Shown here: one piece after another, positions 29,401 through 56,887 of the stretch
Layout: each line of letters starts with the position of its first letter
Position numbering within the stretch: position 1 is the first letter of the stretch
Source: Whalleya microplaca
Lineage: Eukaryota > Ascomycota > Sordariomycetes > Xylariales > Xylariaceae
NCBI GenBank assembly: GCA_022497155.1
Contig: MU385713.1
Location: forward strand, 496,001-560,000
Direction of reading: 5' to 3'
DNA: 64,000 nt
Notes under the pieces: model-generated
Databases searched by the model: none
What the model was told of the DNA's origin: nothing
The model's input: the letters and a program-made list of their open reading frames with translations, nothing else
Translations under genes and position numbers: made by a program

Positions 29401-30835
29401 TTTAAACGATGGGATAAAGATGTCGCGAAAGTAGTACAAATTTTAATAAAAAAACGAAAAAAAGCGGCGGAACGAAATAATCGATAATACTTATTAAAAA
29501 GACGGTTAAAACTATTAAAATAAGGCAGCCTAATTTTATTTTATAATATAATACGAGATATCGATATATCTAAAAATAAAAAGCTAAAATATAAATAAAC
29601 TAGGCCTTATTAAATTGCAAAAAAACAAAAATAAAACAGGTTTTTCCTTAAAAAATTAGACGGGGTAATACTACAAGAAGTATTTTTTTTTAATCGACTA
29701 AAAAAATTTATTCGAGATATAAAAAAGTACTAAAAGTTTAGCAAACCTTATAATAACTATTAGTTAAATAGTTATAATAGAATAAAAAATAATTAAAAAA
29801 ACTTTAAACTAGCAGATAACAATACACCACATCAAAATAAAAATATACAAAAAGGCCCGGTAACCTATAGCCAGACTAAAAAAGTCGAGCCTAATAAAGA
29901 TTAAAAGATTATAAAAAATAAAATATCTAAAAGGACAGTTAAAGTCAGACTATTTAAAATACCATTAGCGGAACGAGAAACTTATAATCGAATATTAAAA
30001 AAATAATATTAATAAATTGGATTATTTTTTTTTACGTTTTATATAAATTGACATTTTATAAAAACAGGGTTTTATAAGGTTACGGCAGATATAAAAAAGT
30101 AATAAAAGAAAAGGAGCTTAAATTAAAAAACATAATCGCAAACTCTAATATATAATTAATTAATTAAACGAAAAAAATTATTATAAGCTATAAATAAAAC
30201 CGCTTATAACCTCGGCAAAAAAGAACAGATTTCTCTAGTAATTTAGCCCAAATATATATTACCTTAAAAACGACCTATTAAAGTAAAATTATTATAATTA
30301 ATATCGCTATTAAAAAGAAGATCTTTCGATTAACGAGTTTTTAAATACGTATGTTTCTTATCCCGAAACGAACATTTGTTTGCTTAAATACCGACTATAT
30401 AATTCCTATACGAACCCCCGAACTAGCCTTTTATTAATCGATATCTATAAAATAGCTATATCCTATTATAGCGCCCGTTCTTAGAACTAATAAACCGATT
30501 TTCGTAAAGCCGGTAAAAAACTTTATTATAAATACTATATTTCTAAATAAAGACTCCAAATTATATACGGCAATTTTCGATTAAACGAAATATTAAGTTA
30601 CTAATAGGGTTAGTTTTACGGATCTCGATAAAAAAAGAATATCGTTAATCGAGGGGGTATTTTATTACTTTAAAGTACTTAATATATTTTAAGGCAGGCT
30701 TTTATATTTAATTTTTATAATAGAATTTCGAGACTGTAAATTTCTAAATATAATACCGACCTTCCCTAGAACTATTAAAAAGTCTAATTTTTACTAGTCG
30801 AATTATTTTATATTAATTAGCAGAAATTATATACG

Positions 30836-31245
30836 TTAGATAAAGAAGGGACTTACCCGGATAAACTTATTTGTTATATTAGCCTTTAAAAAGTAGCGGC
30901 TTATATTATTCTTCCAGAATAAAAGTAGCTTATTCTTACTAATTTTTAAATTAAGGTAATTAAATTTGATATTAAAATAAAAATTAAGGACGTAATTAAC
31001 GTTTTTTATTATCGAGCTAGAAATTTTCGATCGCTTAAAAACGGCAGACTTAAGACGCAAAAGGAGCTTAACGTTAGGGTATAAATCGATAGAAAAAAAG
31101 AGATGACGAAAGTCTTTAGCTATTTGTATAGCTAATTTACTTATTTTAGAAAAAAAGCGATAATAGAATAAAACGGAATAAGGAAGTCGAGAAAAAAAAT
31201 TGCGGAAACTAGGGTTATTTTAATAAAATTTAACTCGATTAAATA
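30836..31245 (-). pseudogene. Antisense open stretch of unknown origin inside the inner element
   Basis: Read on the minus strand, about 130 codons are open, the longest open run in the RIP-mutated block, and decayed sequence with only TAA/TAG stops continues to about 30650. The composition is Lys/Ile/Asn/Phe-rich as expected of AT-rich DNA, so coding origin is uncertain. It lies between pol and a further plus-strand frame. I recognise no family. Confidence 0.3.
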
Positions 31246-31991
31246 ACGGGGGTTTAGTATTAGTTTTACGAGTTTTAAAAAGAGGATTGCCGATACGCGT
31301 TTCGTCCCAGATATTTATTAAATTCTAACGAACTATTATAACCTAATAAAAGCGTTTAAGGTTATTTAGCTTTCGATTAACGTTATTATAATAAAAGATT
31401 TAACTCCCAAACGTAAGACCTTTTATAAAAGAGAGGGAAATAAATAACTTACGTAAAAGCTTAATAGAAAAAGTCCCCTTCTCTTTTTTCTGCCCCTTAT
31501 ATAATAATAAGTTTTGCGATATAATTACGAATAATTAATTAAGTAAATATTATAAAGCGAAGATAAAGGATAAATAGTTAAATTAGTAATTATTAAAGGG
31601 AAGAGAGGGTATAAAGTATAAGGATAAAATAGATAAAGGGTATAATAAGTAGCCTGGAAAATATATTAAAGCCAAATCGAGTAAGCCGACTTTTAAAATC
31701 AGTAATAACGACCCAAATGCCCTACTATATCTAATATCTAGCCTATTACAAGTTTAAATAACTAATTAAAAATAAAAAAGACTTCCTAATTTATTTTTAT
31801 TTATTATAAATTAAAACTTAACGTAGAAAAGTTTTCTTTATACCAACTTATTAATAACTCCTACCTAACTACCTGTCAATTTTTTGCTCTCTTTTTTTAT
31901 TATTTTTAATTAATTAGTTACGTTTTTTTATAGTTTTATATTAGCCTATCGCAACAACATCATACCTTAAACCTTACTTTTTATATATTAA

Positions 31992-33600
31992 GATGTCGTT
32001 ATAGCTATCGCAACCTAAAAAGTTACCTAAGTTACCCAGAAAAAGGAAAAATAGGCATAAAAACCGGAACAAGAATAAAAAAGTTAATTAAGCGGCCCGT
32101 AAGAACCTTAAGCCTACCTCGAAAGCTAATATTAAGTTTGAGGCTATACCTAAAGATGAGGCTGAAATTAAGTTTGCAGCTAATTCCGACCTTAAGTATA
32201 AAGCTGGAATAACCTTATTTATTAGTTTGCCCCTACAAAAGTAGCTTCCCTTTTCAGATTTTAGTGCGTTCGTTATAATAGCTAATATTAACTTCTGTAC
32301 TATTAATTAATTTCGCGGCCTTCTTATTAAAATACACAGACTTAAACTTTAGACTAAAAATAGGCTGTAGTATTTAAAGCAAGAAATTAAACAAATTATC
32401 GATTTCTTAGAAACAGATTTCTTATTAATTAGAAGCGATAAAATATCTGAAGTTATTTTTAATCGAAACGTCCCTCCTGGTTATAATAAAGACAAATAGA
32501 AGGTAAATAGAGCATTAAGTTTATATAATACTTTTTTTGCTTATTATAAGCGTTAATATTATAATATCACTTTTATGGCTGCTATAATTTAGATAAGTGT
32601 TGCCACTTTTAAAAAAAAACTTATTAAGACAGAAGTTTACTTTAGGACTACTGTGAAACTTAATTAAGAGGTTACTTAAATTAACGACCAGTTTTTTTTT
32701 CGGATTGTTTTAAATAACTCCCGGTTTCTTATATTAACGGCATTTATATATTTACGCGACCTTATAGCTACTAACGTTGAGAAGAAGGGCAGCCCTCACT
32801 TTTTTTTAATTGTTATATTAATAAAAACTTACATTGCCTTTTTGTTTAACTCTATAAATATTTGTGGTAAAGAGAGAATTTAGGCTACTTTTGATCGATT
32901 ACGCCAGGTTTAAATCTAATAAAATAACATAACTCCTATTTATATTAGACTTGTTTAGATAATATAATAATAGGATAGGTTTAGTTGCGGCTTTTAAGTA
33001 GCTTATTTAATCTTTCGCTTTTTTCGCTTCCCTATTACATTCCTTCGCTTTTATAAAAATTTTTATTTTATTAACGAAAAACGAGAAATAAAAAGCTGGA
33101 TTATAAAGATAAAACAAATAGTGGCTTATAGGGTTATTAATTAACCCGATAGCTCTAATAAACCAGAACGAGAACCCGAACCTAAGTCTATTTTTGTTTT
33201 TAGCTTATTTTAAGCGAAAAAGATATCCCGACGCTAGCCCAAACTATATAAAACTTATATAAGTTTTTTAAATCTCGATTAACATTAACCCCTTTTAGGA
33301 GAACGACAAGAAGCTACCTATCGAAATAGGAAGGCCTATACTCCATACAGATAGGTAAAAAATAAGTTTACCGCGCTAGGAAAACGACTATAGCTTACTT
33401 TTTTTATGGGATGGAATGGTTGGGCAGATTACGAAAAACGTATGGCTATTATTAATTAATAGAAAACCTCTTTTTCTGCTAAACCTAATCGATCAGAATA
33501 TATAAGATGACGTGGGTTTATTAGAAAGTATATAAAACTAAATAAGAAAGGAAGGGTAATTAAGCCTAAAGCGAGAGCTTATAAAAAGTAAATAAAATAA
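31992..33600 (+). pseudogene. Extra decayed ORF downstream of pol in the inner element
   Basis: From an ATG at 31992 a frame of about 530 codons can be followed, interrupted only by TAA and TAG codons that fit former Gln or Trp codons. It begins with a very basic region (P-R-K-R-K-N-R-H-K-N-R-N-K-N-K-K), as in nucleic-acid-binding proteins, then a mixed, apparently globular region with several Trp, Arg and Tyr residues near the end. GC content is higher than in pol. I recognise no family. Extra ORFs in this position occur in some LTR elements as env-like or captured genes; nothing here supports a membrane protein. Confidence 0.42.
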
Positions 33601-33673
33601 ATACTTTCTGCGTTTGTATTAATTAATTAGATTTTTTTATAATAAGGATATTTATAACAAAATTTAGGAAGGA

Positions 33674-33900
33674 TGTTATAGGGTTAGTATGCCGTAGCAT
33701 ATATATATCGCTTGTCTTTTTCTTTTACTTTTAGATAGAATATATATAGCTTAGATAGTCTCGTTGCCGATAATAAACATATCTTTTTTTTCGATTAATT
33801 ACTGTTATAAGTGACTTTTTTATTTCGTTGCCTTAATTACTTCCGATTAGCGAAGCTATAAAGTGGCACCTCCTTTACCCTAACACCCTATCCTAAGACA
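33674..33900 (+). repeat. Inner 3' LTR (227 bp)
   Basis: Direct repeat of 22394-22620, less RIP-altered than the 5' copy, preceded by a polypurine tract. Confidence 0.85.
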
Positions 33901-34337
33901 TTATATAATTAATCAGTTATACACCCATAAATGGCCTCTAAAAAGCTACAAAAAGCTTCTATATACCGTTAATAACACCACTTTCTCGAAACTCTTTAAT
34001 CCCCCTAATCCGATACAATACTTTATTATTAAAAAAAAGCTTAATATACCTTAATAAATAGAGTTAAAAACGAAGCTTTTTTAAAGAAGTTAAAAAAATT
34101 AAAAAAATCTTAAAATTCCTAATAAATTTATAGGCTAATAGTAATACTGTTAAAGCGGTAAGCGTAAAGCTAATAAAGCTAAGCTCCCTATTAATCTGCT
34201 AAGCAATTTTTCCTTTTTATATAATCGATTAGTATATTATAACCTAACGGCTAATATATAATTAAAGTGCTATCGTTATATACCCTAAAGATCCCCTAAA
34301 TAACGATCTATATAAAAAGAATTTCCTTAGGGAACTT

Positions 34338-35459: not shown

Positions 35460-36527
35460 ATGAAGCCTACCGGAGTGCTCATGGTCGGCAGCGTTCCCGG
35501 AGCCTCGCCTGAGGAGGTCTTCACGCGTTTGACTACCGCTCTTCCTGGCCGCTTGCAAGCTGTACCAGATGGCGAGACCGGTGAGCGATGGAATTACATT
35601 GGATGGCAACTGCAACGCTTTCCTCTCGTAGCTCGACGAAATGAACTAGGAGGGATACCGTTACCTGAATCTGGATCGGGACTGCCGGCTTTTACGCTCG
35701 AAGATATCAAACCAACAGCCTATGATGAGGTGGCGTTGTCGTCATACAACGAGCTCAAACGACTTCGTGAGCAAAATATTATTCCGTCAAATGTCCGTTT
35801 CCAGATCGGCCTGCCTTCACCGTACAGCGTCTTGATTGGCCATGTGAAACCAGAGCTGGTAAATGCGATTGAGCCGTTATATGAACAACGTTTCGCGGAA
35901 ACGCTCGATCATATCGTTACGAATATTCCTCACGATGATGTGGTGATTCAATGGGACTTATGCTTTGAGATGACAGCACTTGAATTCGACCAAGGACGGT
36001 TTACTGAAACACGGCATCAAGCCTATTTTTCATCACCCAATGGCGTGCTACAGGGTCTTGTGGACCGTGTGGCACGGTTATGTGAGCGGATTCCTAAGGA
36101 CGTGAAATTTGCCTTCCATCTCTGTTACGGCGATCTCCGGCACAAGCATTTTGTTGAACCCCACGATACATCGCTACTGGTCGAGCTCGCCAACGCCCTG
36201 CTTGCACGCGAGACCCTCGGCCCACGAACTGAATGGATTCACCTGCCCGTACCAAAAGAGCGAACTGATCCTGAATATTTCTCACCCCTGACCGGTCTCA
36301 AGCTTGATGGCTCCGGCTCGAAACCTCCTTACATATATCTTGGTGTGGTGCATGCCAATGACGAGGCTGGGACAAAGAAACGCATCGAGACTGCACAAGC
36401 TACTGTCCCATTTTCCTTTGGCGTGGCTACAGAATGCGGCTTAGGCCGGACTCCGCCTGAAGAGATCGACAGTATCCTACATATCTGCAAAGAAGTCACC
36501 GCAGAGCGCCTACAAGAGAAGCTATGA
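35460..36527 (+). CDS. MetE-like (cobalamin-independent methionine synthase fold) zinc-site protein
   Basis: An intronless 355-residue protein with a UROD/MetE-type barrel: G-S-V-P-G at 11-15, the P-D-G-E-T-G-E-R-W loop at 36-44, V-I-Q-W-D-L-C-F-E at 162-170, F-H-L-C-Y at 219-223 and T-E-C-G-L-G-R at 324-330. The last two match the H-x-C and C-G-L-x-x-R zinc-binding motifs of MetE (here His220, Cys222 and Cys326), so a zinc-activated methyl transfer or related thiol chemistry is possible. The MetE N-terminal duplicate domain is absent, so it is not methionine synthase itself. It is the first gene after the transposon and runs toward the O-methyltransferase gene, making it a candidate cluster member of unknown role. 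Confidence 0.78.
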   Translation: MKPTGVLMVGSVPGASPEEVFTRLTTALPGRLQAVPDGETGERWNYIGWQLQRFPLVARRNELGGIPLPESGSGLPAFTLEDIKPTAYDEVALSSYNELKRLREQNIIPSNVRFQIGLPSPYSVLIGHVKPELVNAIEPLYEQRFAETLDHIVTNIPHDDVVIQWDLCFEMTALEFDQGRFTETRHQAYFSSPNGVLQGLVDRVARLCERIPKDVKFAFHLCYGDLRHKHFVEPHDTSLLVELANALLARETLGPRTEWIHLPVPKERTDPEYFSPLTGLKLDGSGSKPPYIYLGVVHANDEAGTKKRIETAQATVPFSFGVATECGLGRTPPEEIDSILHICKEVTAERLQEKL

Positions 36528-37041
36528 GCATGTGGTACACGGTGATAGTACTAAGGCTGTAATAGGGGCATCTACCTGGGGACCTGGGATAAGAGTGACT
36601 ATATCTGCTTGATAGTTGATTAAATATGCACACTTCAAAAATCTTGAATATTGAATTGAAATTCATTTTTGTTATTTTGAATAATCATCATCTTTTCAAG
36701 GAAGTATCAACTAAGTAGACCCTTACACACACCTGATATGTTATAAGCTAACTATGTGTGTAATGATTTCGGGAGGTTCTCTTGGTGAGAGCTCCCTGCG
36801 ACGCCGTTAGCTGACCTTGTACTTTGTTATTATACAATAATACGCACTCCACCTCCTCGCTTAAGCAGTCACAATAACTATGCAAAGGCTATTAACATAT
36901 CATAACGTACTCATAAAATCTATATAAAAAGGGATAAGTCTATAGGGAAGATAATTTACGCCTATTTAGATGCGCACCCGCGACGTCGGCACCCCGTGAG
37001 ACTCCATCAAACACTCTCAGCTCGAGTCAAGCCAAGCAGAA
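36528..37041. other. Convergent intergenic region
   Basis: About 510 bp between the stops of the MetE-like gene and the O-methyltransferase gene, which converge. AT-rich with no recognisable gene; probably 3' regions of both. Confidence 0.55.
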
Positions 37042-38516
37042 TTAATCGCCCTCCCAAATGACCTCAAGAATAGCAAGGGCAGCTCCCTGAACTGAGAAAG
37101 AGCGAACAGTCCCGAACCGGGAGTCGGCCGCGGTGAAAATGTCCTGCCATTCGGCCATAGTACGCAGTCGTGAATTGTTCGTCGTCAACATCAGCAGGTC
37201 AATGAAACTACATAGTAAAATTGTTCAGCACTTGAGTCTTGGATGCAATATTGGACACAAGATTTCTAACGTACCGGATGGTCCGCTCGAGCGTCAGCGG
37301 CAAGGAGCCAGGTGGCGAACTCAGGCTCTCGTTTACGAGAATTCGAGCCCCCTTGCGCAGCGCAGGGACCTGTGCCCGTAGAATCCGAACAACATAGTGG
37401 TCCGGCCAGTCATGGAATACCCAGCGGAACAGGTAGACATCCGCCCCCGCGACAGGCTGCGTTAAGAAGAAATCGTATGCCTGGTATAGAACGCGATTGG
37501 CCGGCGATGCCTGTTCCGCTGCTGCCACAACGTCTGGCAGGTCCTCGACCACCATGTTCAGCCGCGGATGCGCCTTGCTGAGTGCTCGGCTGACATGACC
37601 GTCTCCGCCCCCGACATCCACCACCGTGCCTGCGCCGAGCGCGTCCCAATCGTACCCCGTGACGAGGTGCGATTCCGAGTATCCCGGCACGCCCGCCGAG
37701 TAGAAGCGCATCGCCTTGCTGAACTGGTCGGCCTGGGAGGGCTGCGTGCGCAGGAAGTCGAACATAGTCTTGTCGGTGCTATGTGCCAATGCAAATCCCT
37801 GTGGGCATTAGCTTCTGCACCTGTGATCGGCTTTCTAGGCGCCGCGTACCGTGTGGTTGGGCTCGCCATCTTTGAAGCTATCCAGCGCATCTGCAGTCTG
37901 CTCACGAATCATTAGATGGTCAACGCTCACGCTGTTCGGCGAGGCCACGGGAGGAACACGTACTCTGGCAAATGAGCCGTAGAATTCGTCGAACGACTGA
38001 CCCAGCCCAGCGCGCACGATGTCGTCGGAAGCGAGCTTTTTTGATCCCACAGAATGCGCTACGAACCCCTCCTGCGGCTCCGTGAAGAGGCGATGGAAGG
38101 ACATCGCGAAGCGCATAATGCGTTTTAGGTCATTGGCGCGTAAGTCTGTGGCCTCGGCTAGCTCCGTGAATGAGATCATGCCTTCCATGGGAACCTTGCG
38201 GGCAATATCATGGCGTGAGATGATTTGTAGGCTGGTGCCATTGTACTACCCGCGTGTTAACTCACTTCTCAGGCCTGTTTTCTATGCACACCTTGGGTAG
38301 CATGCAGGCTATAGACCCCTGCAGCAGGTCCAGTAGCTCTTGAAGAGCATCAATCGCAGTGATGCGTGCGCGTTCTGCCTGTGGTGAGAGGTTCAACGTT
38401 ATGGGCCCATCGGCGTCGAACGAGGGATACGGTAGACTATTTTGGTGTAGGTAGTTGCTTATAGTGCTGGTATTAGCACTGATAGTAGCCGCCAACTGAT
38501 CGATACGTGGAGCCAT
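37042..38516 (-). CDS. SAM-dependent O-methyltransferase (COMT type)
   Basis: Exons 38292-38516, 37850-38245, 37275-37798 and 37042-37207 (introns 46, 51 and 67 nt) join in phase to 436 residues. A winged-helix dimerisation region precedes a class I methyltransferase domain. Visible motifs are the SAM-binding V-V-D-V-G-G-G-D-G-H (266-275), V-V-E-D-L-P (290-295), and L-F-R-W-V-F-H-D-W-P-D with the expected catalytic His336. The length fits fungal secondary-metabolite O-methyltransferases. In this cluster it could methylate a hydroxyl on the modified peptide, for example a tyrosine-derived phenol. This is inference, since other dikaritin clusters use differing methyltransferases. It shares strand with the first UstYa gene 427 bp upstream. 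Confidence 0.88.
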
Positions 38517-38943
38517 AGCGAACAGAAGTTTATTGATAGGTCAGCTATAGGGGGGAGCCACACGCTGGTATACTAGTACATGAGTGACAACAACTACTCA
38601 AAGTCACCAGCCTATAGCTGGCTAACTGAAAGAGAGTCCCCATGGCTAAGGAGTGAATAGATCAATGTGAATAATAGTGCTTCGTATTGCTGCAGCAGGC
38701 TGCTGTGTGTGCAAAGGTCTAAAAGTCCTCTACCTGAAAAGGCTGAAACTACGACGACGCAATGTGACTAGGAATAGTTACTCAAGGACCACCTAAGCTA
38801 CCTATCATGCAGTTCTACTACAATGACTTGATCATAAAGAAGGGGAAGGTGACACTTGGAGCAACTAACAATGTATTATTCACGAATGGGTGGATGGACA
38901 AATCCACTTTTTAATGCATTCCATACACTAAATTTGGACTGTA
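38517..38943. promoter_or_regulatory. Promoter region of the O-methyltransferase gene
   Basis: A 427 bp stretch between the UstYa 1 stop and the methyltransferase start, both minus strand. No specific motif was identified with confidence. Confidence 0.4.
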
Positions 38944-39789
38944 TCACGTTGTGGAATCGAAAATAAACCCCGACCCGTTGGTCGCCCGCCACTGCGTTGC
39001 CCACGCCTTGATCTCGCTGAAGTCACGGCACTGCCGCCCGAACATGACGTCGGGGTAGTGACCTGCATAGAAGGGCTCGATACCAACGTCGGCGGTACAG
39101 ACCAAGCTCTGCTGCAGGTAGTCTAGGCAATGGCCAATATGATCAGGCTCGCGGACGCCCGCTCTATTGAACTCCTGCCCAATTGAGGCGGAATATGCGG
39201 CGTAATATGCACGTCGAACGGTGTACTATTTCCCGGGCAGTTAGTAGACTTAGCCTTCACCAATTTGGGTCGGATCTCGCGGAAGCACTTCCCAGACAAT
39301 GCAATTGATGAAAGACACCGATGACCGAGAACTCAGGGGCTAAGGTGGGATGTTTGACGTAGCCGAGGCCATCTACCGAAGACTCAGCCCATGATATGTT
39401 GGTCAGCAGCATGTTTCTGCTCACCTGGAATCAGCTTGTCCCACGCAGGTTCGTGACTCCCATTGGCTGGAGGTGCGGTTTGCATTTCGGGCATGGTCAA
39501 CACCTGCTGCCGCGAGAAGCCAGTGAGGGGCACTGCGTAATATAATGTTACCCATCTGGAGGCACGTCTGGAATGGAATGGAAAAGTACGTACGAGATGG
39601 AATAATGTCCGGAAGTGTGGACGGTTGTGCGTCAGCTGCTCCAAGCATCCAACCGGCACCAAAGCTGAGAACACAGAGCAGCGACGTAACGGCTGTCACG
39701 AGCCAAATCTTCATCGGCTGTGTCGGGTCCTTGTCTGTGCCACTCTCGAGCTTGGAGTACCGCGGGCTTCCGTGGCATTGAGCGAACAT
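38944..39789 (-). CDS. UstYa-family (DUF3328) peptide-modifying oxidase 1, with a damaged splice donor
   Basis: Exons 39594-39789, 39425-39532, 39293-39372 and 38944-39225 would give 221 residues. One transmembrane helix lies at residues 32-52 (I-W-L-V-T-A-V-T-S-L-L-C-V-L). Both copper/metal-type family motifs are present: H-Q-L-H-C-L (123-128) and H-I-G-H-C-L-D-Y-L (157-165), each an H-x-x-H-C. The third intron (39226-39292) has a good branch site (CTAAC) and a TAG acceptor, and its removal joins H-C-L to Y-T-V-R-R-A-Y-Y in the family manner, but its donor reads GGAAGT instead of GTAAGT. No GT donor nearby keeps the second motif in frame. The gene may be inactive, use a rare GG donor, or contain a sequence error. 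UstYa proteins oxidatively cyclise dikaritin core peptides in the secretory path. Confidence 0.82.
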
Positions 39790-40518
39790 AGTAGGTTTTG
39801 AGATAGACAAAACAATATTAGAGCGGACAAATGACGGAAAAATAAACTAGGACATGAAGGGTACGAGTAAAATTACATGTAGATTGAGAGTAAACAAGAG
39901 GACAAGGAAGCAAGGCAACGGAGTACAGATACAGCTTATACCAGAGCGGCGGGAGCAATGACAGGGAGTATATTTACCAACCCCTTGGGCGTTTAAAGAA
40001 CATCCGATAGCATCACATCGGTGTGTGTGGTTCAGATCATATCTGACTCATGTGCTATGTGTGCCGCACCCACAGTTACAATACTGATCCTTACGCGTCA
40101 TCTCTGTGTAACGGTGCCACGATCAGAATCGAGACCTAGCAGCAATTTGGACCATGTCTAGGTGTCGCCAACTACATAGTTACATACAGGTTTAAGCATC
40201 GTATCAAACAAACCAAGTAAGCAGGCTGATATAGTATCATTCCATGAGCTATGGAACTGGTTTTTTTTTGTTGTATTATTGTTGTTGTTGAAGGTTGGGG
40301 GGTTTCCTTGTCTCTTCTTTTCTTTCATAATGTGATACTTTAGTTTAAGTCGTATAATCAATGTAAAGGCACAGAAGAACGAAGGCGTTTCTTACCGTAT
40401 CCCCTTGAGCGCTATAAATGAACGCCCCCCTATGACGCCCAAGAGGGTAATAGCTATGTATTATATGTTGAAGCTCAACTTGTCATTAACATTGGTCGGA
40501 TGGTTGTAGTATTAGGTA

Positions 40519-40593
40519 TCACCTTGAATATTTGGATACCATTTAGCAAGGACCCCTCCTGCAGGGAGCTGACAAGTGGGGTTACTAGCTACT
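40519..40593 (+). repeat. Degenerate direct repeat, copy 1
   Basis: Similar in block order to 41301-41378. The pair brackets about 700 bp without a gene and may be remnants of solo LTRs or a small transposon. Confidence 0.55.
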
Positions 40594-41300
40594 ATTAACA
40601 GGTCGTCACACAACTTCTGTGCCTCAGCCCTACATAACCTTGGCGTCCTTATGAACGCATATCACACATATATTAGATGAAGCCAAGGCGTGCGGTACAA
40701 CAGCCTTGGTTCATCCTCCACCAACCCCGACGTTCCATCGCCCGGGCCCCGCTCCACAGCTGTGCTTCCATACATGAGTACCCTACAGTAGTTTGGCGTA
40801 TTGCCGGCAGATGCTGACAACCTCTCTTGAGCAGTTTTTGATTGGATATATGCGAGACTGGTCGAAAGATATGCCCATTTTTGTCTCAGTATAGATACAA
40901 TCATTTAATCGGTGGAACTCGAATGCACCTCACGAAAACAGGAGAGCTATCATAACTAACAAGCCAAGCTTTATGCCCTGTTTAATACCTGGGCCTTGAT
41001 CGAAACCCTTGAGCACATCCTGCGAGCCGAATGGCACTCTATCTGTCTATTTAGCCCCTGCTGCCCTACTATGCGTGAGTGCGGGTGTACCCGCTCTTAC
41101 GGCCCGGCCCGCCTGTGGAGTACCCCACGAAGGAAAGTGGGTGCCACACGAGGCCATGATTTCACTATCAACGGGCATCGGAGGATTGGATGTCACCCTA
41201 TCCGCAGTGATGAGAAGATGGAGTACCACAACATGCCTAGTTGCAAGATCTACGAGTGCAGCTAGTTGTGATCCATAGCCTAGTACAAGATATTCAGCTG

Positions 41301-41378
41301 TCACCTTGAATTTTGATACCCATTTGGTGCGTGGGGGGTCCTATGCTAGTGAGCTGACTAGTAAGGTTGCTAGCTACT
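41301..41378 (+). repeat. Degenerate direct repeat, copy 2
   Basis: Partner of 40519-40593, differing by substitutions and small indels. Confidence 0.55.
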
Positions 41379-41599
41379 GCACGTAGTGTTCAGTTCGTTA
41401 CATGGAGTCGAAATATGGAGCACGTTATATGCATAGGAGAACCTGTTAGCCCAACAGTCGGGCACATAGTATTTGAAGTTGTACCCTCTGCATGGCCTTC
41501 GAATATCTCGAATATCATCAACCAATCCAGTAACAGGGAAAGGTGCATCTGAGCAGCTTGTGTAACCTGATATCATCCAATCATAACATGTTGATCTCC

Positions 41600-41990
41600 T
41601 CCGAGTCCCACCTATTGGCGGGCGTGTGGCGTTGGTATCGTGTGATGACATAGTCAAGCTCTGGATCGCTGACAAGGACAAGCTGCAGCAGACGCTCAAT
41701 ATCGGAGCTCCTTCACACAATCTATACCTCGATAACAGTAGTACACATAATGTAACTCTTATTGGATCTGTTACTCTTTGGGATATATCAGACTCCTATG
41801 TATCAGTTAGGGATGTCGAGATCCATGCTCGTTCTCATACAAAGGGTCATGAGCTCTTATCAAGCTTTGGCATGGATGTAGGCTATAGCATCAATAGCAA
41901 TGGGGATTGAACTGTATTTAGTAGAAAGCGTGTGTTTCGGTTACTAACCCTACCAGTGGACTGCCGATCTTGAAGTTTAGCTACCTCTTT
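41600..41990 (+). pseudogene. C-terminal remnant of a NACHT/WD40-type NLR gene
   Basis: From about 41605 the plus strand encodes a WD40-blade-like segment (V-A-L-V-S-C-D-D-I-V-K-L-W-I-A-D, then K-L-Q-Q-T-L-N-I-G), followed by S-H-N-L-Y-L-D-N-S-S-T-H and a decayed G-Y-S-I-N-S-N-G-D tail where a TGA stands in place of a likely Trp. This is the order seen at the end of fungal NLR proteins whose WD40 domains are followed by a conserved tail. A frame disruption also seems present near 41755. No upstream NACHT or effector domain is visible, so it is a gene fossil. It has no evident link to the peptide cluster other than position. Confidence 0.5.
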
Positions 41991-42840
41991 CGGTAGCATT
42001 TCTAGCAGGGTTCAAATGACGCATGTCAAGAAAAGCAAGTGTAAGATTATACTATCCATCTGATTAAATTAGCTTCTTAGTATATTACATAGTACTCAAT
42101 TAGCTTGTTCCTTTTATTCTCTTTGAAAGGGAGGGTGCTTGGGCGATAGTTTAATTTATGTAGAGGACGTAGTCAAAATAGTGTTCCTTGGCTCCCAAGC
42201 TGTCAATGTAGTATCTGAACTCCTAGTTCCACGTTTAAACGGCCAAGCACTGTAAACTCCACGATTGCTTCTTTTAACAATACATCTTGCCCAGCGCAAG
42301 AGGAAGCCGTTTCCGTTGTCTACTGTACTTTTACCGTCTTATAAATAAAATTCAACTATACTGTCACAAGTTTGCTAGCAACAACTGTGCTCTGAGCTTC
42401 ATAGTCCAGTACACCTCCTCGAGTCTCAAAGTCTAAGTGTGCCCCAGGCCACGGAACAATTTACCCAAACCAGAGACGGCTGGCGTTGCTACACCGTGAT
42501 TTCGCAACTTAGAGCCAAACTTGTACCTATCTGACATGCATATCGCCATGCGTCTCCGTCAAGCCTTGTCACTGTGTGGTGCACAAAAAGCAGGTCAGAT
42601 GGCACTCTGAGCCATGACTAGTAATAGATCGTCTGAGATTGTGGTATGAGTGTAACGAGTGTTGTTGCATCCAGTAGCGGTAGCATCACTGCCCCGATGT
42701 CACATTATGCCCCTATGTTTCCTACAGCCTCCGACTCCAGCAATGTACTCCGTACTCGCCAGCATACGGACAACTACTACTCCTAAGATTTGAGCTCCCG
42801 CAGACCTCATGGCCAATCCGATAGAGAATTGTACACTCCA
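41991..42840. other. Downstream flank of the precursor gene, no gene seen
   Basis: About 850 bp of ordinary composition with no open frame carrying recognisable motifs; the precursor transcript's 3' region should lie at its right edge. Confidence 0.5.
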
Positions 42841-43013
42841 TCAGTACTCATCGCCCACGGCATTGAAGTCCACTTCCTCGGGGGTTTGGATGTTCCGTTT
42901 ATACTCATCACCTACGGCATCAAAGTCGACCTTGTCGGGGCTTTGAATGCCTCGCTTGTATTCATCGCCCACAGAGCTAAAGTCGACCGCATCTGGGTTC
43001 ATAGTATCTAGAT
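42841..43013 (-). repeat. Three 57 bp coding tandem repeats of the precursor
   Basis: The repeat period is 57 bp (starts of the equivalent blocks near 42849, 42906 and 42963). Codons for the decamer differ at silent positions while residues are conserved, which indicates selection on the peptide. Confidence 0.88.
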
Positions 43014-43116
43014 CTGTTAGCTGAATCAATTATTTTGCTACGTAATCCATACGGCTTGAACTTAGCGGTGCTGCACTGGAAAGGAGACTAAACAAGAGTG
43101 CAGGCATGAAACGCAT
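42841..43116 (-). CDS. Candidate dikaritin RiPP precursor with three Kex2-separated repeats
   Basis: Proposed exons 43053-43116 and 42841-43013 (78 residues). The first exon encodes a hydrophobic secretion-type signal (M-R-F-M-P-A-L-L-F-S-L-L-S-S-A-A). The second encodes three units, 19 residues apart, each with the decamer V-D-F-x-x-V-G-D-E-Y; the first two decamers are followed by Lys-Arg and the third by the stop codon. Linkers are N-P-D-A, G-I-Q-S-P-D-K and N-I-Q-T-P-E-E. Secretion signal, repeats and Kex2 sites are the hallmarks of fungal KexB-processed peptide precursors. The unspliced frame meets TAA at 43030-43032; a 39 nt GTATGG...ACAG intron (43014-43052) removes it and keeps frame, but that is very short. 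The likely core includes the C-terminal Tyr and central Phe as cross-linking sites; the exact core is unknown. Confidence 0.8.
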
Positions 43117-43233
43117 GTTGAAATTTTTTGTTGCCGTTCGGACTGTGTTTAGAAGGATAATTTGCACCAAAAGGTAAGGCGTATGTAGATGTCGTCTGTG
43201 TTGGGGATCTAAAGGGCTTAGAGGTTACCTAGG

Positions 43234-43244
43234 TTTATATATAG
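43234..43244 (-). promoter_or_regulatory. Candidate TATA box of the precursor gene
   Basis: The minus strand reads CTATATATAAA about 120 bp upstream of the precursor start codon. Position and sequence fit a strong TATA promoter, as expected for a highly expressed peptide precursor. Function is inferred. Confidence 0.5.
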
Positions 43245-43659
43245 AGGTTGCGGTCACAAATGATACTTTTTACTCGATATGCTCAAGTAGACTCTTCAAA
43301 TCCTTGGGGGTTACAGTGAGCCAAACTAATCACCCCGAGGGCTGTAGTATATAAAACGCAAAGAGCTATAGCGTATCATTCATTGATGGCCGCTATGTGC
43401 TTGGCGCTGTGTACGCCCGGCGTGGAGTCTACTGCACTAGGCAGTGCATTGAAATGAGAAACAATGTTATAGCCAAAACATGCAAGTCGAGTGGACGACG
43501 TTGTGATACAACGATTTTGATAAGCTGACGCTCTGGGCTTGCGTAGCAGTGTGTACTATCAGCTCCCTACACATTAATTTTATTGCATACAGTGAAGTTT
43601 CCGACTAGTTCATATTCGACCCGTGATTGTAATGATATCGTGGAATTGACATATGAGTT
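43245..43659. other. Region between the precursor gene and the second UstYa gene
   Basis: About 415 bp without a gene: upstream control region of the precursor and the 3' flank of UstYa 2, both transcribed on the minus strand. No clear operator was identified. Confidence 0.45.
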
Positions 43660-44568
43660 CTATAGAATAGTTGCACCGTAGTCGATCGCTTTCACACCGT
43701 CATCGCCATTTTTTCTACAAAACCCAAAGTGGGCCTTGAGCGGTATATCCTCAATGCTATCTCGATAACACGCCGTGTTCTCAGCAGCCCAAGCACGCAG
43801 TTGCTCCCAGTCTTTACATTGATGGAGCTGTCCGTCGCCAGCTGTGTGGTCGCCAAACGAGTACAGCGGTGTGTTGTCTGCATTACACTGCACGTTCTGC
43901 CGCAGAGCATCGAAGCAATGGTCAACGTGCGGTCCCGGGTGATATGTGAACGGCTTTCCATCAATTGCTTCCCAGAACGTCAATCTCATAATGCGCTACT
44001 CGAATTAGCAAGACAATTCATCGTCGTGTACCTGAGAGACATACTATACAGTGAAGCAGGTGGTATGCTTCAAGGAGATACACAGCTTTTGTCTTATCGC
44101 CCGGGTAGTAACCGCTCAGCGGCCAACCCTGTGCCGCCGCCCATTCTCGGTCTACGCTCACAATGCCGTGCGCAGGGTTGATTTCGTTCCAGAGGCTATC
44201 GGCATCGGAGCGGTTTTCTGGACTGTACGCTGTATTCCACCAGAAGCGCTTATAGACGGTGTCGAGTTCGTCAGTGCGGGCTGTTTGTTAGTCAACATTT
44301 GAGTTCTCGAGGCAAATGACATACCTAATTGAGAAGGAGACTGCTCTTGCGGCATCCAGAAAGGCCAGCTAAGCGAGAGGAGGTTCGTCACCACAAGCAG
44401 AATTATCCCGTACATAAACCATCGTCTTCGCAGCCGTGTGTGATCTGTGTACGGATCTTCCGCAGCATAAAGATATTCTGGGAGTTGGGATAATGCCTGA
44501 TACGGAGCCATGGTGGAGATATTCGAAGTAAGAGTTGGCACGTTCGTTGTCATGCTTCTATCAGGCAT
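43660..44568 (-). CDS. UstYa-family (DUF3328) peptide-modifying oxidase 2
   Basis: Exons 44325-44568, 44045-44280 and 43660-43995, with introns of 44 and 49 nt bearing GTATGT donors and CTAAC/CTAAT branch sites, giving 271 residues (252 if Met20 at 44511 is the start). A membrane helix follows R-L-R-R-R (W-F-M-Y-G-I-I-L-L-V-V-T-N-L-L). The family motifs are intact: Y-H-L-L-H-C (154-159) and H-V-D-H-C-F-D-A-L-R (183-192), each H-x-x-H-C, with the W-W-N-T-A-Y and D-x-E-W-A-A-A-Q-G-W segments in between. UstYa proteins carry out oxidative ring closure on ribosomal peptides such as ustiloxin B and asperipin. It lies 540 bp from the precursor and is divergent from the tyrosinase gene, so the two may be co-regulated. 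Confidence 0.93.
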
Positions 44569-44945
44569 CGAGTACGATGGATATTGCTGTCAGATCTACA
44601 AGTGCCTGCACTTCAGCCAGGAAGGGGTGCGTCCAGGGTGTAGGCGCATCGGTTCGCTCCCCTGGCTCGTTGATCACATACTACCTACCCTGCTTGTATC
44701 AAGATACCTAATGCATTATTTGCCGGAATATTGAGCTACCATGCGGCGAAGAGGCACAGCAAGGCATCCTTATTAGGGTACGTACCAATACCTGTCTTCT
44801 TTTTTTCCCCTCCCATAACGTTGGGGGAATCCGTACACTTGGTGCAGAACAGAATTGGGGGGACGGCGACGCTCCTCGCCTATCTCTCCTTGCGAGTACT
44901 CATATCATTATTGTTACCTTCATTGAATGCCTCTGGCTTCACAGA
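44569..44945. promoter_or_regulatory. Divergent promoter between UstYa 2 and tyrosinase
   Basis: A 377 bp region separates two genes transcribed away from each other, suggesting shared control of two core enzymes. No Zn2Cys6 or other regulator gene is visible in the cluster; short GC-rich motifs exist but none could be assigned. Confidence 0.55.
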
Positions 44946-46152
44946 ATGCCGTCGAGCGAATGTGAGTGCGAGGACGATCAGACCATCGCGGAGCCTCTCT
45001 TACAGAAGACAGAGACGGGTGCCCCAGCCACATCGCTGCGCAAGCGGTATGTGGTAGCAGCCATCGCTGCTGTCGTGCTCATAATCGTATTGCTCTTCCT
45101 CTGGGCTCTGCTTGGTAGGATCGAGTATATCAACAGCGACGGAATATGTAGACAACCCGCTGTCCGTCGTGAATGGCGGGCGCTGGGTAGCCTAGAGCGC
45201 CTTGAGTATCTTCGCGCGGTCAAGTGTCTATCGTCGATCCCCTCAACCGTCTGTAATGGGACTCTGCACGACGAATTTGCATACATTCATCGTAAGATCG
45301 GCGACTATTGTACGTATCCCCTTCTTCTCCTTCAACAGCTTTGCTGATCTTCCAAAGCTCATGAAGCAGCCCCATTCCTCCCATGGCATCGATACTTTAT
45401 CCATATCTACGAAGAAACATTGAAGAACCGCTGCCAATATGAGGGAACTCTTCCGTGAGAGGCATCCCCCGACTTCTGGATTCCACTGATGTTGTGTTAG
45501 GTATTGGGATTGGGCGCAAGATTGGGCAAATTTGACCCAAGCACCAGTATGGAATGCTACAGAAGGCTTCGGGGGAAACGGCAACGTGGATCTGCCCACT
45601 ACTGTAGGCCACGGTCACTGTGTTCAAGATGGGCCCTTTGCAGGCTTGCAAGTCCAATACTACAACAAAGACTGGAATCCGCACTGTCTATCGCGAGGCT
45701 TCCTGACAGGAGAACTTCGAGACCATTTCGGAGCACAACGACTGAATAGCAGCGCTATGGCAACCGTGTTGGATGAGCCCGATTATTACGGGTTCCTCTT
45801 GATGCTGGAGGACGGCCCGCATTCAGCCATTCCCATTACCGTGCGCGGGGACTTCTCACGTTTCACGGCACCAAATGGTATGTTTACGACGTCCGTCTGG
45901 GGAATCCTACTTATCATGATAGATCCCATATTCTTCCTACACCACGGACAGATTGATCGGCTCTGGTGGAAATGGCAGAGCGAAGATCTTGAGGTGCGGA
46001 CGCTGGCCTATGACGGCCCATCAAGGCATAATTCGTCCATTGCGGCGCAGCTCACTGATCCGATCGAAATGGTTGGACTAGCACCTAGCATTCCAGTCAG
46101 CTCAGTAATGGCCATTAACAATGGGCTGCTGTGCTACAAGTACCAAGACTGA
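44946..46152 (+). CDS. Membrane-anchored tyrosinase (UstQ-like type-3 copper oxidase)
   Basis: Exons 44946-45309, 45358-45454, 45501-45877 and 45923-46152, with introns of 48, 46 and 45 nt, giving 355 residues. A helix at residues 35-56 anchors the N-terminus. CuA ligands: His115 (F-A-Y-I-H), His123 (S-H-E-A-A) and His132 (F-L-P-W-H-R). CuB: His261 (G-P-H-S-A-I-P) and the pair H286-H287 in D-P-I-F-F-L-H-H. The last intron is in frame with no stop; removing it restores A-P-N-D-P-I-F-F. The usual CuB H-x-x-x-H has Pro instead of the second His (residue 265), which may be a subfamily trait. In ustiloxin-type pathways the tyrosinase oxidises core-peptide tyrosine and acts with UstYa proteins in ring formation. 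Here the precursor's conserved Tyr is the likely substrate. Confidence 0.92.
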
Positions 46153-46460
46153 GAATCACGTTATATAGAAACACATATTTTAAGTACAATATGCCTTGGC
46201 TGATAGTGACACTCGTAGGAACAAAAATAAAAAACCAAGAAACCCTATGTATTCAGGCTGTGTTACACCTCGACGGGCGTGTAATTAAGCCCGAGTACGC
46301 CCAATCGGAGCTTGTCAAACTCATGCTGTTGTGCTCCCCAATATGTGACAGGGGTCCTAATTTAATACTTCCAATAAAAAGCTATCACTACCTTTGACAA
46401 CTTGACTATTTCCGTGAATATCGACTGAATCTCGCTGCACTCATTGTACTCGCGCACGCT
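46153..46460. other. Spacer between tyrosinase and MFS genes
   Basis: A 308 bp region holding the tyrosinase terminator and the MFS promoter. No motif assigned. Confidence 0.45.
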
Positions 46461-48385
46461 ATGTCGACCTACCAATCGGCCACTCCTGAAAACCCTGAAC
46501 AAGAGGCCAAGCGGGAACAGAATGCTGTCTTTGAAGACGAGCCCACTACAAATGCATCGCAATCTACTCACCTTTCGGGATGGCGGCTGTGGCTCACGAC
46601 CTCAGCGTACGTTGAACCTCGGTCCAGCTTGATTAGACTGACGTTTTTAGGATTATGTTGGCGACGTTCCTCGTTAACATCGAAGTATCGATCGTAGGCA
46701 CTTCTTTGATCACAATCGCCAATAGCCTCCACCGCTTCAGCGAGACTAGCTGGATCGTGACTGGATACCTAGTGACATACACAGGTAGGTATCTCGCCCG
46801 CCATGATTCGAAGCATGCTCATTCGTTCTGCAGGTTTCATGATCATCTGGTCCAAGCTGAGCGATATCATCGGCCGCAAAGTGACCTTTATTACAACCAT
46901 GGTCCTGTTTGTCGTCTTCTCGGGAGGCTGTGGTGCCTCGCAAACGATAACCCAGCTGTACGAAGCCACTTATATCTCCGCGAAGTTATCTAACACTGTG
47001 GCTAGAACAATTAATCGTGTCTTCCAAGGCGTTGGGGCTGCTGGTACCTACTCTTTGGCAGTGGTGATCCTGTTTGAGATGGTGCCGCCACGCAAGTACG
47101 CAGCTTACAGCGGTGGATCTGTGGCCGTGGTCTCAGTGGCTAATGTCCTTGGACCCGTCGTGGGCGGGTTGATCAACAATAATGGTTCCTGGCGCTGGGC
47201 TTTTCTATTCATGTGGGTTGCTTCAGACAGTCTGAGCTCGTTGCTAACCGTCTGTTGCAGTGTTCCTTTTGGCGCTCTCGCCATCGTTATCATGATGATT
47301 GGCTTCCCAGCCAAACGTCCGAACCAAAACGAAGGGTCGGTCTCTGGACTTTTTAAATGGGCGAATATAGGCCGACTTGATTTCCTTGGAGCGGCGCTCT
47401 TGCTTGCAGCATCTATGTTGTTGGTCACCGCGCTGCTGGAAGCAAGTATCCGATTCGGATGGAACGCGGGCGTGACTATTGCCCTTCTCACCCTTTCGGG
47501 CTGCGGTTGGGTTGGATTCCTCATATGGGAGCGATTCGTGACAAAATGGCAAAGGCCGGAGCCGATCTTCCCATGGACTTTCTTTTTCAATATGACGTTC
47601 GTGGGAATGCTTCTGTATGTTCATCGCCATTCCTTACGTAGACTTGCTCGCTAACTCTTTAGGACGACTTGCATGGTCGGCGTTCCATTCAATGCACTCA
47701 TAGTTAACCTGCCGCAACGATTCCAGGCACTGGATGGCAAGACGGCATTAGGGGCAGGCATTTGGTTACTTCCTTATACCGTGGTGTCACCCGTGTGCTC
47801 GGTCATCTCCAATGTTGTGGCTTCGAAAGCTAGGGTCCCACTGATCTATCTACTCCTTGCTGGTGCTGTTTGCCACTTGGTAGGAGTCACTTTACTATCG
47901 ACAACGAACGGAATCGACTTCCCGTCTGCTGGCTTAGGATATGAAGCCATAGCTGGCGCAGGCGTGGGCATAACTTTCTCTATTCTTGTCCTCGGAACCC
48001 CGTTCGTCGTAAACCCACGTGATATTGGTAAGTGAATCAAACGTGGATGATACGTTCATTCTAATATGCATCTCTAGCTGTGGCAACTGGAGCTATCGTC
48101 CAGCTGCGTTTCCTAGGAGGTGCCATCGGAGTCGCTGTCACATCGGCTTATATGAACAGCTACTTAAAATCGTCGCTCGCGAATGTCCTAAACCCGGAGA
48201 CGTTAGGCGCCATCCTACAGGACACCAGCGTTATAAAGGACTTAACCTCTGAGTTGCAAGAGGATGTTAAGCGAATTTTCGCCCATGGATACGCAACTCA
48301 GATTCGGATCCTTATCGGGTTTTCAGCAGTACAGCTCTTATCAATAAGTCTTATATGGCGTACAAAGCAGATAAAAGTACCTTAA
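46461..48385 (+). CDS. MFS drug/metabolite exporter (14-TM DHA2-like)
   Basis: Seven exons: 46461-46606, 46651-46784, 46834-46957, 47006-47212, 47261-47614, 47663-48027 and 48078-48385; all six introns are 44-50 nt and the joins give 545 residues. A polar cytosolic N-terminus of about 45 residues precedes the helices. Family marks are L-V-N-I-E-V-S-I-V-G, the loop 2-3 motif W-S-K-L-S-D-I-I-G-R-K, R-V-F-Q-G-V-G-A-A-G after the third intron, and the helix 5 region V-L-G-P-V-V-G-G-L-I. Such transporters export fungal secondary metabolites and give self-protection. The position 308 bp after the tyrosinase on the same strand marks it as the cluster's exporter. Substrate is inferred from context only. 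Confidence 0.92.
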
Positions 48386-50054
48386 TATTAGGAAGTACTG
48401 GGGTCTTCTTCGGCTATGGACAGACAGCGGGAGTCTACAGTATGGTATGCCCTTTCCTCTCCCGGAAGACTATGAGCTCTTTTAGAACGTGCGCCTCAGC
48501 TACCGGAGGTTTGGTCTTTGGAGTCGTTCTCATTGCTTGGTTTCTCTTTGGCTGGGTCGTCTTTGACTCCGTAGAAATAACATGCGACTATTCGGCAATT
48601 ATTCCATGAGGAGTCGTAATAGCAGGTTTACGGCCAACCTTGGCTGTCCGATTAAATCGGTGCTTCGGGCACCGGAGGCATTTTCCAATTCAAAAATTGA
48701 AGAAATAGACGCAGGTTATTAGCATCATAGTAGTTGTTGTTACGGAAGTAACATCACTAGAGTCTAGCAGAGGAGGGAGACCTCATATATCAGTCATGTC
48801 CCAGCCATCTGGATTACCAGTCACACATCCCTGTAATCCGTCAAAAGTGAATAACGTAAACATGGTATCAAGCTCCCCAAAAATGATAATGGGATATATT
48901 TGAGAACATTGCCCTTGGAACTTTGGATGTATGTCAACCACCTTCTACAAGTTCCAGTCAGGAGTCCAATCACCGTCGAGACGGTCATCATTATCAGAAA
49001 ATGGTGAGAATAAGGCGGGGACTTGGCACCAGTCACCAGTATTATATGTGTGAGATGCAACACCCGAGAGCATATCCGTTCCATCAGCTGCGGCATGCTC
49101 GTGCTCGACCTTTATGTAACTTACTCGGATGTCCTGGCCAAGGTCCCCATCTCTTTCGAAGATTCGACGCTTCCTTGTTGCATTTCCTTGTGTGAAGCGA
49201 ATTCAGTATAATAAAAATTCTCGTTGTTCAGATCAGCTACTATTTTATGGATGGATTGCCACTTCAACCGCACAGACTGTCTAAGGTCACGTTATTAGGG
49301 GGCATCGCAAATTCATCTACCATGGCGGTCGGTCCTGAGGCATCATCAATTCCATCGTCCATTTGTCTATTTGCCCCGGGTCTTCTCGACGGCCAATGGA
49401 CCGGCGAATTTTTCGATCGCGGCTAGGGGGTGCTGTTCGGAATTGGTGGCGTTGTCGTCTTCAGTATTTTCTCCTGTGTCCTATTTTTGTCAAACCCCAG
49501 TGAATATACGGCTCAGTTTTCGACAATCGCTAGTCCATCGGTGCTATGTTTCCTGTAAAAGAAGAGAGTATTCCATTGAGAAGATCTAACATTTGCAATA
49601 TCCGCGTTAGTTTATCTAGCCTATTATGCTTGCATTGTCCATGAATAGTATTGGTAACTCGTCTAAGCTATGACCGCCGTGGTAATAACCATTCCGTTAG
49701 GTGATGAAACGACAAGAATCCTACTAAATGTGTCGGACTACAGGGATGTGTGGCTGTAATAATTCAGGTGGCTAGACGACCCATAAGCTGTGGCTTATAT
49801 ATACGAGGCTCTCCCTCCTCTAGACTCTGAGCGATGATACTTCCCTAGTAATAACTACTATGATACTCATAACCTGCGCCTATTTCAACAAAATGTGCAT
49901 TGCCGTAATTCGAAAAATTCATTCATGGACTATGGTTCCGTAACGATGCTATCTAGCAGTATCTGACAATACTGACCCAGAGGAATACTGTATTTCTTTG
50001 CAGTTAAGCCTTATGCACTTCATTCTGGGCCAACTTGTGAGGCATAGCTACCTC
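48386..50054. other. 1.7 kb region, right edge of the cluster
   Basis: No recognised gene. An 84-codon frame at 48355-48609 overlaps the MFS stop and is hydrophobic but has no family match or promoter room, so it is probably chance. Other frames near 48821-49211 overlap on both strands. Confidence 0.45.
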
Positions 50055-54598: not shown

Positions 54599-54730
54599 GA
54601 TGTTGTTATTGGAGTTATCAAAGACCCCCTTGATGTTGTCATTGGGGTTATCAAAGACCCCCTTGATGTTGTCATTGGAGTTATCAAAGACTCCCTTGAT
54701 GTTGTCATTGGAGTTACCAAAGACCCTCGG
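54599..54730 (-). repeat. 33 bp minisatellite, four copies
   Basis: Units start at 54599, 54632, 54665 and 54698 and differ at few bases. On the minus strand each codes an 11-residue V-F-D-N-S-N-D-N-I-K-G unit, keeping frame. Confidence 0.9.
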
Positions 54731-56700: not shown

Positions 56701-56805
56701 GATTCCAGTAAACCCGGGGGAATCGGCCACCGTCCGGTTCCAGTAGACCCGGGGGAACCGGCCACAGTGCGGTTCCAGTAGACCCGGGGGAACCGGCCAC
56801 AGTGA
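56701..56805 (-). repeat. 35 bp minisatellite, three copies
   Basis: Units start at 56701, 56736 and 56771; the second and third are nearly identical. Because 35 is not a multiple of three, each unit changes reading frame. Confidence 0.9.
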
Positions 56806-56824
56806 ATCGGCCACCGACAACCCA

Positions 56825-56887
56825 GTTGTACAACTGAGTCCGGTTGTACAACTGAGTCCGGTTGTACAACTGAGCCCGGTTGTACAA
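56825..56887 (-). repeat. 18 bp minisatellite, three and a half copies
   Basis: Units start at 56825, 56843, 56861 and 56879 and contain the palindrome TTGTACAA. On the minus strand they encode repeated L-Y-N-R-T-Q. It lies 19 bp from the 35 bp minisatellite. Confidence 0.9.

What the first reader, a model, noticed from the sequence alone, without database searches (positions are those of the whole stretch)
35460..48385. A candidate dikaritin-type RiPP gene cluster
Within 13 kb lie a repeat precursor with secretion signal and Lys-Arg sites, two UstYa/DUF3328 genes, a tyrosinase, an O-methyltransferase, an MFS exporter and a MetE-like protein. The precursor + UstYa + tyrosinase combination defines the ustiloxin/phomopsin-type pathway class. 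The precursor is easily missed because it is tiny and interrupted by a stop in the genomic frame.
Basis: partly seen in the sequence, partly recalled or inferred. Interest (0 to 1): 0.93.

Follow-up and report, generated by a model that had tools for sequence, protein, structure and literature searches.

The report
Fungal cyclic-peptide (dikaritin-type) gene cluster
A fungus carries what looks like a set of genes for making small cross-linked peptides from a ribosomal precursor; the set belongs to a known and widespread kind, with an unusual precursor sequence and one unusual neighbouring gene.

Summary
The window is from Whalleya microplaca (Xylariales). Between 37.0 and 48.4 kb lie an O-methyltransferase, two UstYa/DUF3328 genes, a 76-aa precursor with three repeats parted by two Lys-Arg sites, a tyrosinase and an MFS transporter. 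The in-frame stop in the precursor lies in a 45-nt intron; the public 76-aa record fits that splice. The repeat copies differ mostly at third codon positions. Among the matches found, only here do UstYa and tyrosinase genes lie side by side in this genome. The dikaritin-type reading is well supported; product, chemistry and expression are untested.

It is a new member of a known kind: a survey lists 1,758 Kex2-repeat precursors near DUF3328 genes (PMC7329392). The precursor search found only itself; the tyrosinase has close relatives in other Xylariales-type fungi.

Two additions. The MetE-like gene shares a contig with the related tyrosinase in 8 of 15 comparable species, so it may belong. 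The tyrosinase clade lacks one canonical CuB histidine (kept in 3 of 58). UstYa-1 lacks a convincing third intron, so partial decay is not excluded.

The parts
35460..36527 (+). MetE-like protein, 355 aa, intron-less; possible cluster member or conserved flanking gene
   Evidence: No Pfam/NCBIfam match above cut-off. AlphaFold model (pLDDT 91) matches cobalamin-independent methionine synthases best in the PDB (Foldseek best E 3.0e-8, prob 1.00, 12-15% identity). H220, C222, E325 and C326 conserved in 52 of 52 aligned sequences. Relatives at up to 87% identity in many Xylariales-type fungi.
37045..38516 (-). O-methyltransferase (4 exons as read: 38516-38292, 38245-37850, 37798-37275, 37207-37045)
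   Evidence: PF00891 Methyltransf_2, E 1.1e-22 on the third exon; introns; spliced protein not built.
38945..39789 (-). UstYa-1 (DUF3328); the third intron, between the two HxxHC motifs, has no good canonical GT-AG solution
   Evidence: PF11807 57.9 bits on the last exon; HQLHC at 39310 and HIGHC at 39141.
42841..43116 (-). Precursor, 76 aa: signal-like N-terminus and three units ending VDFxxVGDEY, two followed by KR, the last by the stop codon; intron 43052-43008
   Evidence: public protein P0001 fits this model.
43660..44553 (-). UstYa-2 (DUF3328), 266 aa, exons 44553-44325, 44280-44045, 43995-43660
   Evidence: PF11807 55.0 bits on exon 3; open spliced frame with HLLHC and HVDHC and GT-AG introns.
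44946..46152 (+). UstQ-like tyrosinase, 355 aa, 4 exons, predicted helix 31-57 near the N-terminus (membrane anchor inferred)
   Evidence: Spliced model 100% identical to public W. microplaca protein P0122; PF00264 134.1 bits; nearest solved folds are fungal polyphenol/catechol oxidases.
46461..48385 (+). MFS transporter, several exons; exon limits not worked out
   Evidence: PF07690 67.4 bits on 46776-47651; efflux-type NCBIfam matches, none over its cut-off.

Best explanation
This is a dikaritin-type RiPP cluster in Whalleya microplaca. The precursor enters the secretory pathway, Kex2 cuts after Lys-Arg, and three peptides ending VDFSSVGDEY, VDFDAVGDEY and VDFNAVGDEY are released. The two UstYa proteins, with the tyrosinase, oxidise the tyrosine that ends each unit and link it to another side chain; the O-methyltransferase methylates the product, perhaps at a phenol or catechol; the MFS protein exports it. 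Shown here: gene content, repeat conservation, enzyme families and motifs. Inferred from the class: secretion, processing, cross-link, methylation, export and the limits of the active core.
For: Family matches for both UstYa genes, tyrosinase, O-methyltransferase and MFS; precursor repeats with third-position-biased change and Kex2 sites; public 76-aa record fits the intron; among the matches found, the only UstYa-tyrosinase neighbourhood in this genome (1.5-1.7 kb, against about 180 kb or more, or no UstYa match on the contig); 11 near-full-length tyrosinase relatives at 67-85% identity in Xylariales-type fungi and a row named ustQ by its source; tyrosine in all three units, as in 65.6% of DUF3328-associated repeats (PMC7329392).
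Against: No expression or product data. UstYa-1 lacks a convincing third intron. No N-methyltransferase or peptidase match among the frames that I scanned. The precursor search found no relative outside this species, although the tyrosinase has close relatives. Only three units and two Kex2 sites.
Confidence: 0.78

Rival explanations
1. A partly decayed dikaritin cluster: the ancestral pathway was functional, but UstYa-1 no longer splices in this strain and little or no product is made.
For: Between the two HxxHC motifs only one GT-AG intron of 35-160 nt keeps an open frame, with a poor acceptor; the other eight solutions are GC-AG. An AT-rich block (24-30% GC, 22-34 kb), perhaps marked by repeat-induced mutation, lies beside the cluster.
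Against: UstYa-2, the tyrosinase and the O-methyltransferase read with GT-AG introns, and the precursor repeats look constrained. A GC-AG intron, an assembly error or an unseen exon would explain UstYa-1. The MFS exon structure was not checked.
Confidence: 0.17
2. The repeat gene makes a linear secreted (signalling) peptide, and its neighbours form an unrelated oxidative pathway.
For: 6,120 of 7,878 catalogued KEPs have no DUF3328 gene nearby (PMC7329392), and Kex2 repeats are shared with pheromone precursors.
Against: The precursor lies between the two UstYa genes; in the survey DUF3328 counts peak at the position next to the KEP gene (PMC7329392); 3 of 20 other UstYa stretches of this genome also hold a Kex2-repeat frame.
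Confidence: 0.05

Closest known systems
Ustiloxin / phomopsin clusters (dikaritins)
   Same: Multi-core precursor with Kex2 sites, two or more UstYa proteins, tyrosinase; a transporter here
   Different: Core not of the ustiloxin (YAIG, recalled) or phomopsin (YVIPID, recalled) type; tyrosine at the C-terminal end of the unit; an O-methyltransferase, while no N-methyltransferase was seen in the frames scanned; MetE-like gene alongside
Lichen Clan R1 clusters (Parmeliaceae; PMC12048977)
   Same: Two UstYa proteins, tyrosinase and O-methyltransferase
   Different: Clan R1 also has FGE-sulfatase and a SAM-dependent methyltransferase, and no repeated precursor was identified; here a precursor is present, and the O-methyltransferase is not between the two UstYa genes
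Putative ust-like RiPP cluster reported in all Hypomontagnella species surveyed, Hypoxylon rubiginosum and H. pulicicidum (PMC8403587)
   Different: Its gene content is in a supplementary figure that I did not see. Against identity: H. rubiginosum, H. pulicicidum and Hypomontagnella submonticulosa are not among the 120 listed tyrosinase rows
Victorin, asperipin-2a and epichloecyclins
   Same: Victorin is cyclised through a C-terminal Phe (PMC9233826); here a Tyr ends each unit. Epichloecyclins link an N-terminal Ile to an internal Tyr (PMC9233826); units 2 and 3 here have an Ile near their N-terminal end, unit 1 has none
   Different: Different core sequences and tailoring genes

Membership tests
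Dikaritin (UstYa-type RiPP) | Precursor with repeated cores set off by Kex2 sites | tested here: met
   Three units, two KR sites, last unit ended by the stop codon
Dikaritin (UstYa-type RiPP) | ER signal peptide on the precursor | tested here: inconclusive
   Hydrophobic N-terminus judged by eye on P0001; no signal-peptide predictor was available
Dikaritin (UstYa-type RiPP) | UstYa/DUF3328 protein with two HxxHC motifs | tested here: met
   UstYa-2 fully; UstYa-1 has both motifs but its splice is uncertain
Dikaritin (UstYa-type RiPP) | Oxidatively cross-linked cyclic peptide product | not testable with these tools
   Needs mass spectrometry and gene deletion
Ustiloxin/phomopsin subtype | Tyrosinase in the cluster | tested here: met
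   44946-46152; relatives include one row named ustQ by its source
Ustiloxin/phomopsin subtype | N-methyltransferase | tested here: inconclusive
   Only a PF00891 O-methyltransferase found among the frames scanned; not every frame was scanned
Ustiloxin/phomopsin subtype | Core with N-terminal Tyr linked to an internal Ile (as described in PMC9233826) | tested here: not met
   Tyr is the last residue of each unit, and VDFxxVGDEY holds no Ile
Kex2-processed repeat protein (KEP, definition of PMC7329392) | Three or more repeats of 8 or more aa between dibasic sites, with signal peptide | tested here: inconclusive
   Three units (two of 17 aa, the first of unknown start), but only two dibasic sites: the ends are the signal-like region and the stop codon
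Canonical type-3 copper tyrosinase | HxxxH at CuB among six histidine ligands | tested here: not met
   Second CuB His is Pro here; across 58 aligned sequences Pro 51, Ser 4, His 3; a profile alignment sets it opposite the His of solved hemocyanins

The most novel reading that the evidence does not exclude
A conserved subclass of dikaritin clusters in Xylariales, and perhaps beyond, uses two enzymes not described for this chemistry: a stand-alone MetE-type zinc methyltransferase that handles methyl groups for the pathway, and an UstQ-like tyrosinase whose CuB site lacks one canonical histidine, perhaps helped by the invariant His215 or Cys216, so that it assists UstYa cross-linking rather than acting as an ordinary phenol oxidase.
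Probability: 0.2. Interest if true: 0.6.

Novelty: new member of a known kind. Interest (0 to 1): 0.38.

Why it matters
It gives a concrete precursor for an UstYa/tyrosinase cluster that also carries an O-methyltransferase; in the similar lichen Clan R1 clusters no repeated precursor could be found (PMC12048977). It names three peptide sequences to look for by mass spectrometry. The missing CuB ligand in 55 of 58 aligned sequences makes a testable point about how the tyrosinase takes part in dikaritin cyclisation.

Tried and rejected
Tyrosinase broken in this strain: rejected, since the missing CuB histidine is shared by most relatives. MetE-like as plain housekeeping flank: not decided. It occurs in many fungi that have no row in the tyrosinase listing, but it shares contigs with the tyrosinase in several. 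The contig comparison rests on equal contig lengths in two lists cut at 120 rows (of 3,662 and 640 found). It used the 15 named species that I saw in both: 8 match, 7 do not (Xylaria longipes; Nemania bipapillata, whose contigs of 6-9 kb tell little; N. diffusa; Paecilomyces variotii; Bogoriella megaspora; Aspergillus oleicola; Byssothecium circinans). Four tyrosinase species close to ours (Hypoxylon texense, Hypoxylon sp. NC1633, Xylaria telfairii, Seiridium cupressi) were left out because no MetE row of theirs was listed; unnamed rows were left out too.

No Pfam match in 10 frames of the 39.9-42.8 kb gap, the first O-methyltransferase exon and the stretch just downstream. UstYa-2 against PDB sequences: nothing. 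MetE-like against PDB sequences: three matches at E 0.7-1, taken as chance, none with a profile. Tyrosinase exon 3 alone against the PDB: nothing. The precursor's four Pfam matches at E up to 10 (best Myb_DNA-bind_8, 0.0056; also Chi-conotoxin, 0.13) are all below cut-off and were dismissed. Literature in the held library only: 0 papers with UstYa + methionine synthase + RiPP, 0 with ustQ + tyrosinase + histidine.

Two script slips: UstYa-2 was first joined one base out and corrected; the intron scan listed nothing for tyrosinase intron 3 and UstYa-1 intron 1 because of its branch-site filter, and I read those two by eye.

Full report
What is there. The window is part of a 48-Mb, 114-contig genome. 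The precursor exon matches one protein in the database, from Whalleya microplaca, placed in Xylariales by the taxonomy; the spliced tyrosinase matches a W. microplaca record at 100%. Left to right lie a MetE-like gene (+), an O-methyltransferase (-), UstYa-1 (-), a spacer of about 3 kb without Pfam matches in the six frames scanned there, the precursor (-), UstYa-2 (-), the tyrosinase (+) and an MFS transporter (+).

The precursor. On the minus strand a start at 43116 opens a hydrophobic N-terminus; the frame meets a stop, and exon 2 carries three units ending VDFSSVGDEY, VDFDAVGDEY and VDFNAVGDEY, the first two followed by KR. A donor at 43052 with acceptors giving introns of 39, 45 or 60 nt keeps the frame; the public 76-aa protein fits the 45-nt one. 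Whether that public model rests on transcripts is unknown to me. Over 13 codons the unit pairs differ at 13, 9 and 11 of 39 nucleotides yet share 10, 10 and 9 of 13 residues; 23 of the 33 changes are at third positions, and random placement reached the observed identity in 0, 133 and 247 of 20,000 trials. So the repeat is a constrained coding sequence. A simple scan for Kex2-repeat frames gave no hit in 20 codon shuffles of the window. Exon 2 has no second match in the genome and only itself as candidate among 5.8 billion proteins; that search needs shared 5-residue words and annotated proteins, so diverged or unannotated relatives would be missed.

The enzymes. Pfam places exons of both UstYa genes, the tyrosinase, the methyltransferase and the transporter above their cut-offs. 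UstYa-2 splices cleanly to 266 aa with two HxxHC motifs. UstYa-1 shows both motifs in separate frames, but between them only one GT-AG intron (127 nt, acceptor preceded by G) and eight GC-AG candidates, of those 35-160 nt long, keep the frame open. I treat that gene as uncertain. I number the two UstYa proteins 1 and 2 because I could not test which corresponds to UstYa or UstYb of A. flavus.

Genome setting. 34 UstYa exon matches lie on 17 contigs and 18 tyrosinase exon matches on 10; of these only the pair in this window is close (1.5-1.7 kb; the next is about 180 kb). The tool calls such counts lower bounds. Three of 20 other UstYa stretches that I fetched hold a Kex2-repeat frame and 17 do not; the scan saw single open frames only and, in places, partial loci. 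So this genome has several such systems.

The tyrosinase. Eleven near-full-length rows (P0123-P0133) are 67-85% identical; the next near-full-length row is 48% identical, while five shorter rows between and below them (P0134, P0136, P0138, P0143, P0144) score 51-82%. I aligned 58 of the 120 listed rows (640 found), leaving out shorter and redundant ones by hand. CuA histidines 115, 123 and 132 are kept in 58, 57 and 58 of 58, CuB histidines 261 and 287 in 58 of 58, but position 265 is Pro in 51, Ser in 4 and His in 3. A profile alignment sets this position against the second His of HxxxH in solved hemocyanins. Other tyrosinases of this genome keep HxxxH, for example on C7, C9, C10 and C20. His215 and Cys216 are invariant in 58 of 58. 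The model (pLDDT 88) matches fungal polyphenol and catechol oxidases best. That loss of the ligand changes the chemistry is inference.

The MetE-like gene. It has no Pfam or NCBIfam match above cut-off and no credible PDB sequence match. Its model fits cobalamin-independent methionine synthases best (TM-scores mostly 0.5-0.6, rmsd mostly 6-8 A, 12-15% identity; uroporphyrinogen decarboxylases follow). An HxC pair and a later Cys, the zinc ligands of MetE as I recall them, are invariant in 52 of 52 aligned sequences (52 of 120 listed rows, chosen by hand). It is the only match in this genome. About 0.2 would be expected if each contig were weighed against an assumed 40-Mb genome. This suggests linkage, but old synteny among related fungi would give the same for seven of the eight, so it does not prove a shared function.

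Comparison with what is known. Umemura found 7,878 Kex2-repeat proteins, 1,758 with DUF3328 genes among the 15 nearest, and 341 tyrosinase genes within 15 genes of a KEP gene (PMC7329392; abstract and two sections read). A lichen survey describes clusters with two UstYa, tyrosinase and O-methyltransferase but without a recognisable precursor, and says that O-methyltransferases had never been reported in dikaritin clusters (PMC12048977; abstract, first part of the discussion, and passages). A Hypoxylaceae survey reports a ust-like RiPP cluster in Hypomontagnella and two Hypoxylon species (PMC8403587; passages only); it may or may not be this one. A review gives the cross-link types (PMC9233826; passages only). 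The present locus is therefore a member of a known kind, with a core that I found in no other record.

Mechanism, by certainty. Shown: gene content, motifs, constrained repeats. Inferred from the class: entry by signal peptide, Kex2 cleavage, UstYa-driven cross-linking at tyrosine, methylation, export. Speculative: a role for the MetE-like protein and for the altered copper site.

Noticed in passing
L030 (G000:C27:278001-288000), minus 8351-9451: A Kex2-repeat frame with 22 scored units of the type SDADAATKYIADKR beside several UstYa exon matches: a second, longer dikaritin-like locus; no tyrosinase match on its contig.
   Followed up: partly
L032 (G000:C13:912001-922000), minus 4887-5180: Three units of the type TNDYPKYGSASEYEAVNNEKR with a signal-like N-terminus, near three UstYa exon matches.
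   Followed up: no
L041 (G000:C78:54001-64000), plus 7296-7568: Three scored units of the type SPEPPLWDGGVDFEEEKxKR, with tryptophan and no tyrosine, near an UstYa exon match.
   Followed up: no
window 22001-34000: AT-rich block (24-30% GC against about 41-52% on either side) next to the cluster, perhaps from repeat-induced mutation; not tested.
   Followed up: no
window 48686-48758 and 49830-49902: Inverted repeat arms of 73 nt, 79% complementary, 1,071 nt apart, just downstream of the MFS gene: possibly a decayed transposon at the cluster edge.
   Followed up: no
window 1380-2658: Likely end of a highly reducing polyketide synthase (ACP_SdgA_C and KR matches on 1936-2655), a separate secondary-metabolite gene.
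   Followed up: partly
window 54597-54726 and 56703-56887: Tandem repeats of 33, 35 and 18 nt inside open frames without Pfam matches.
   Followed up: no
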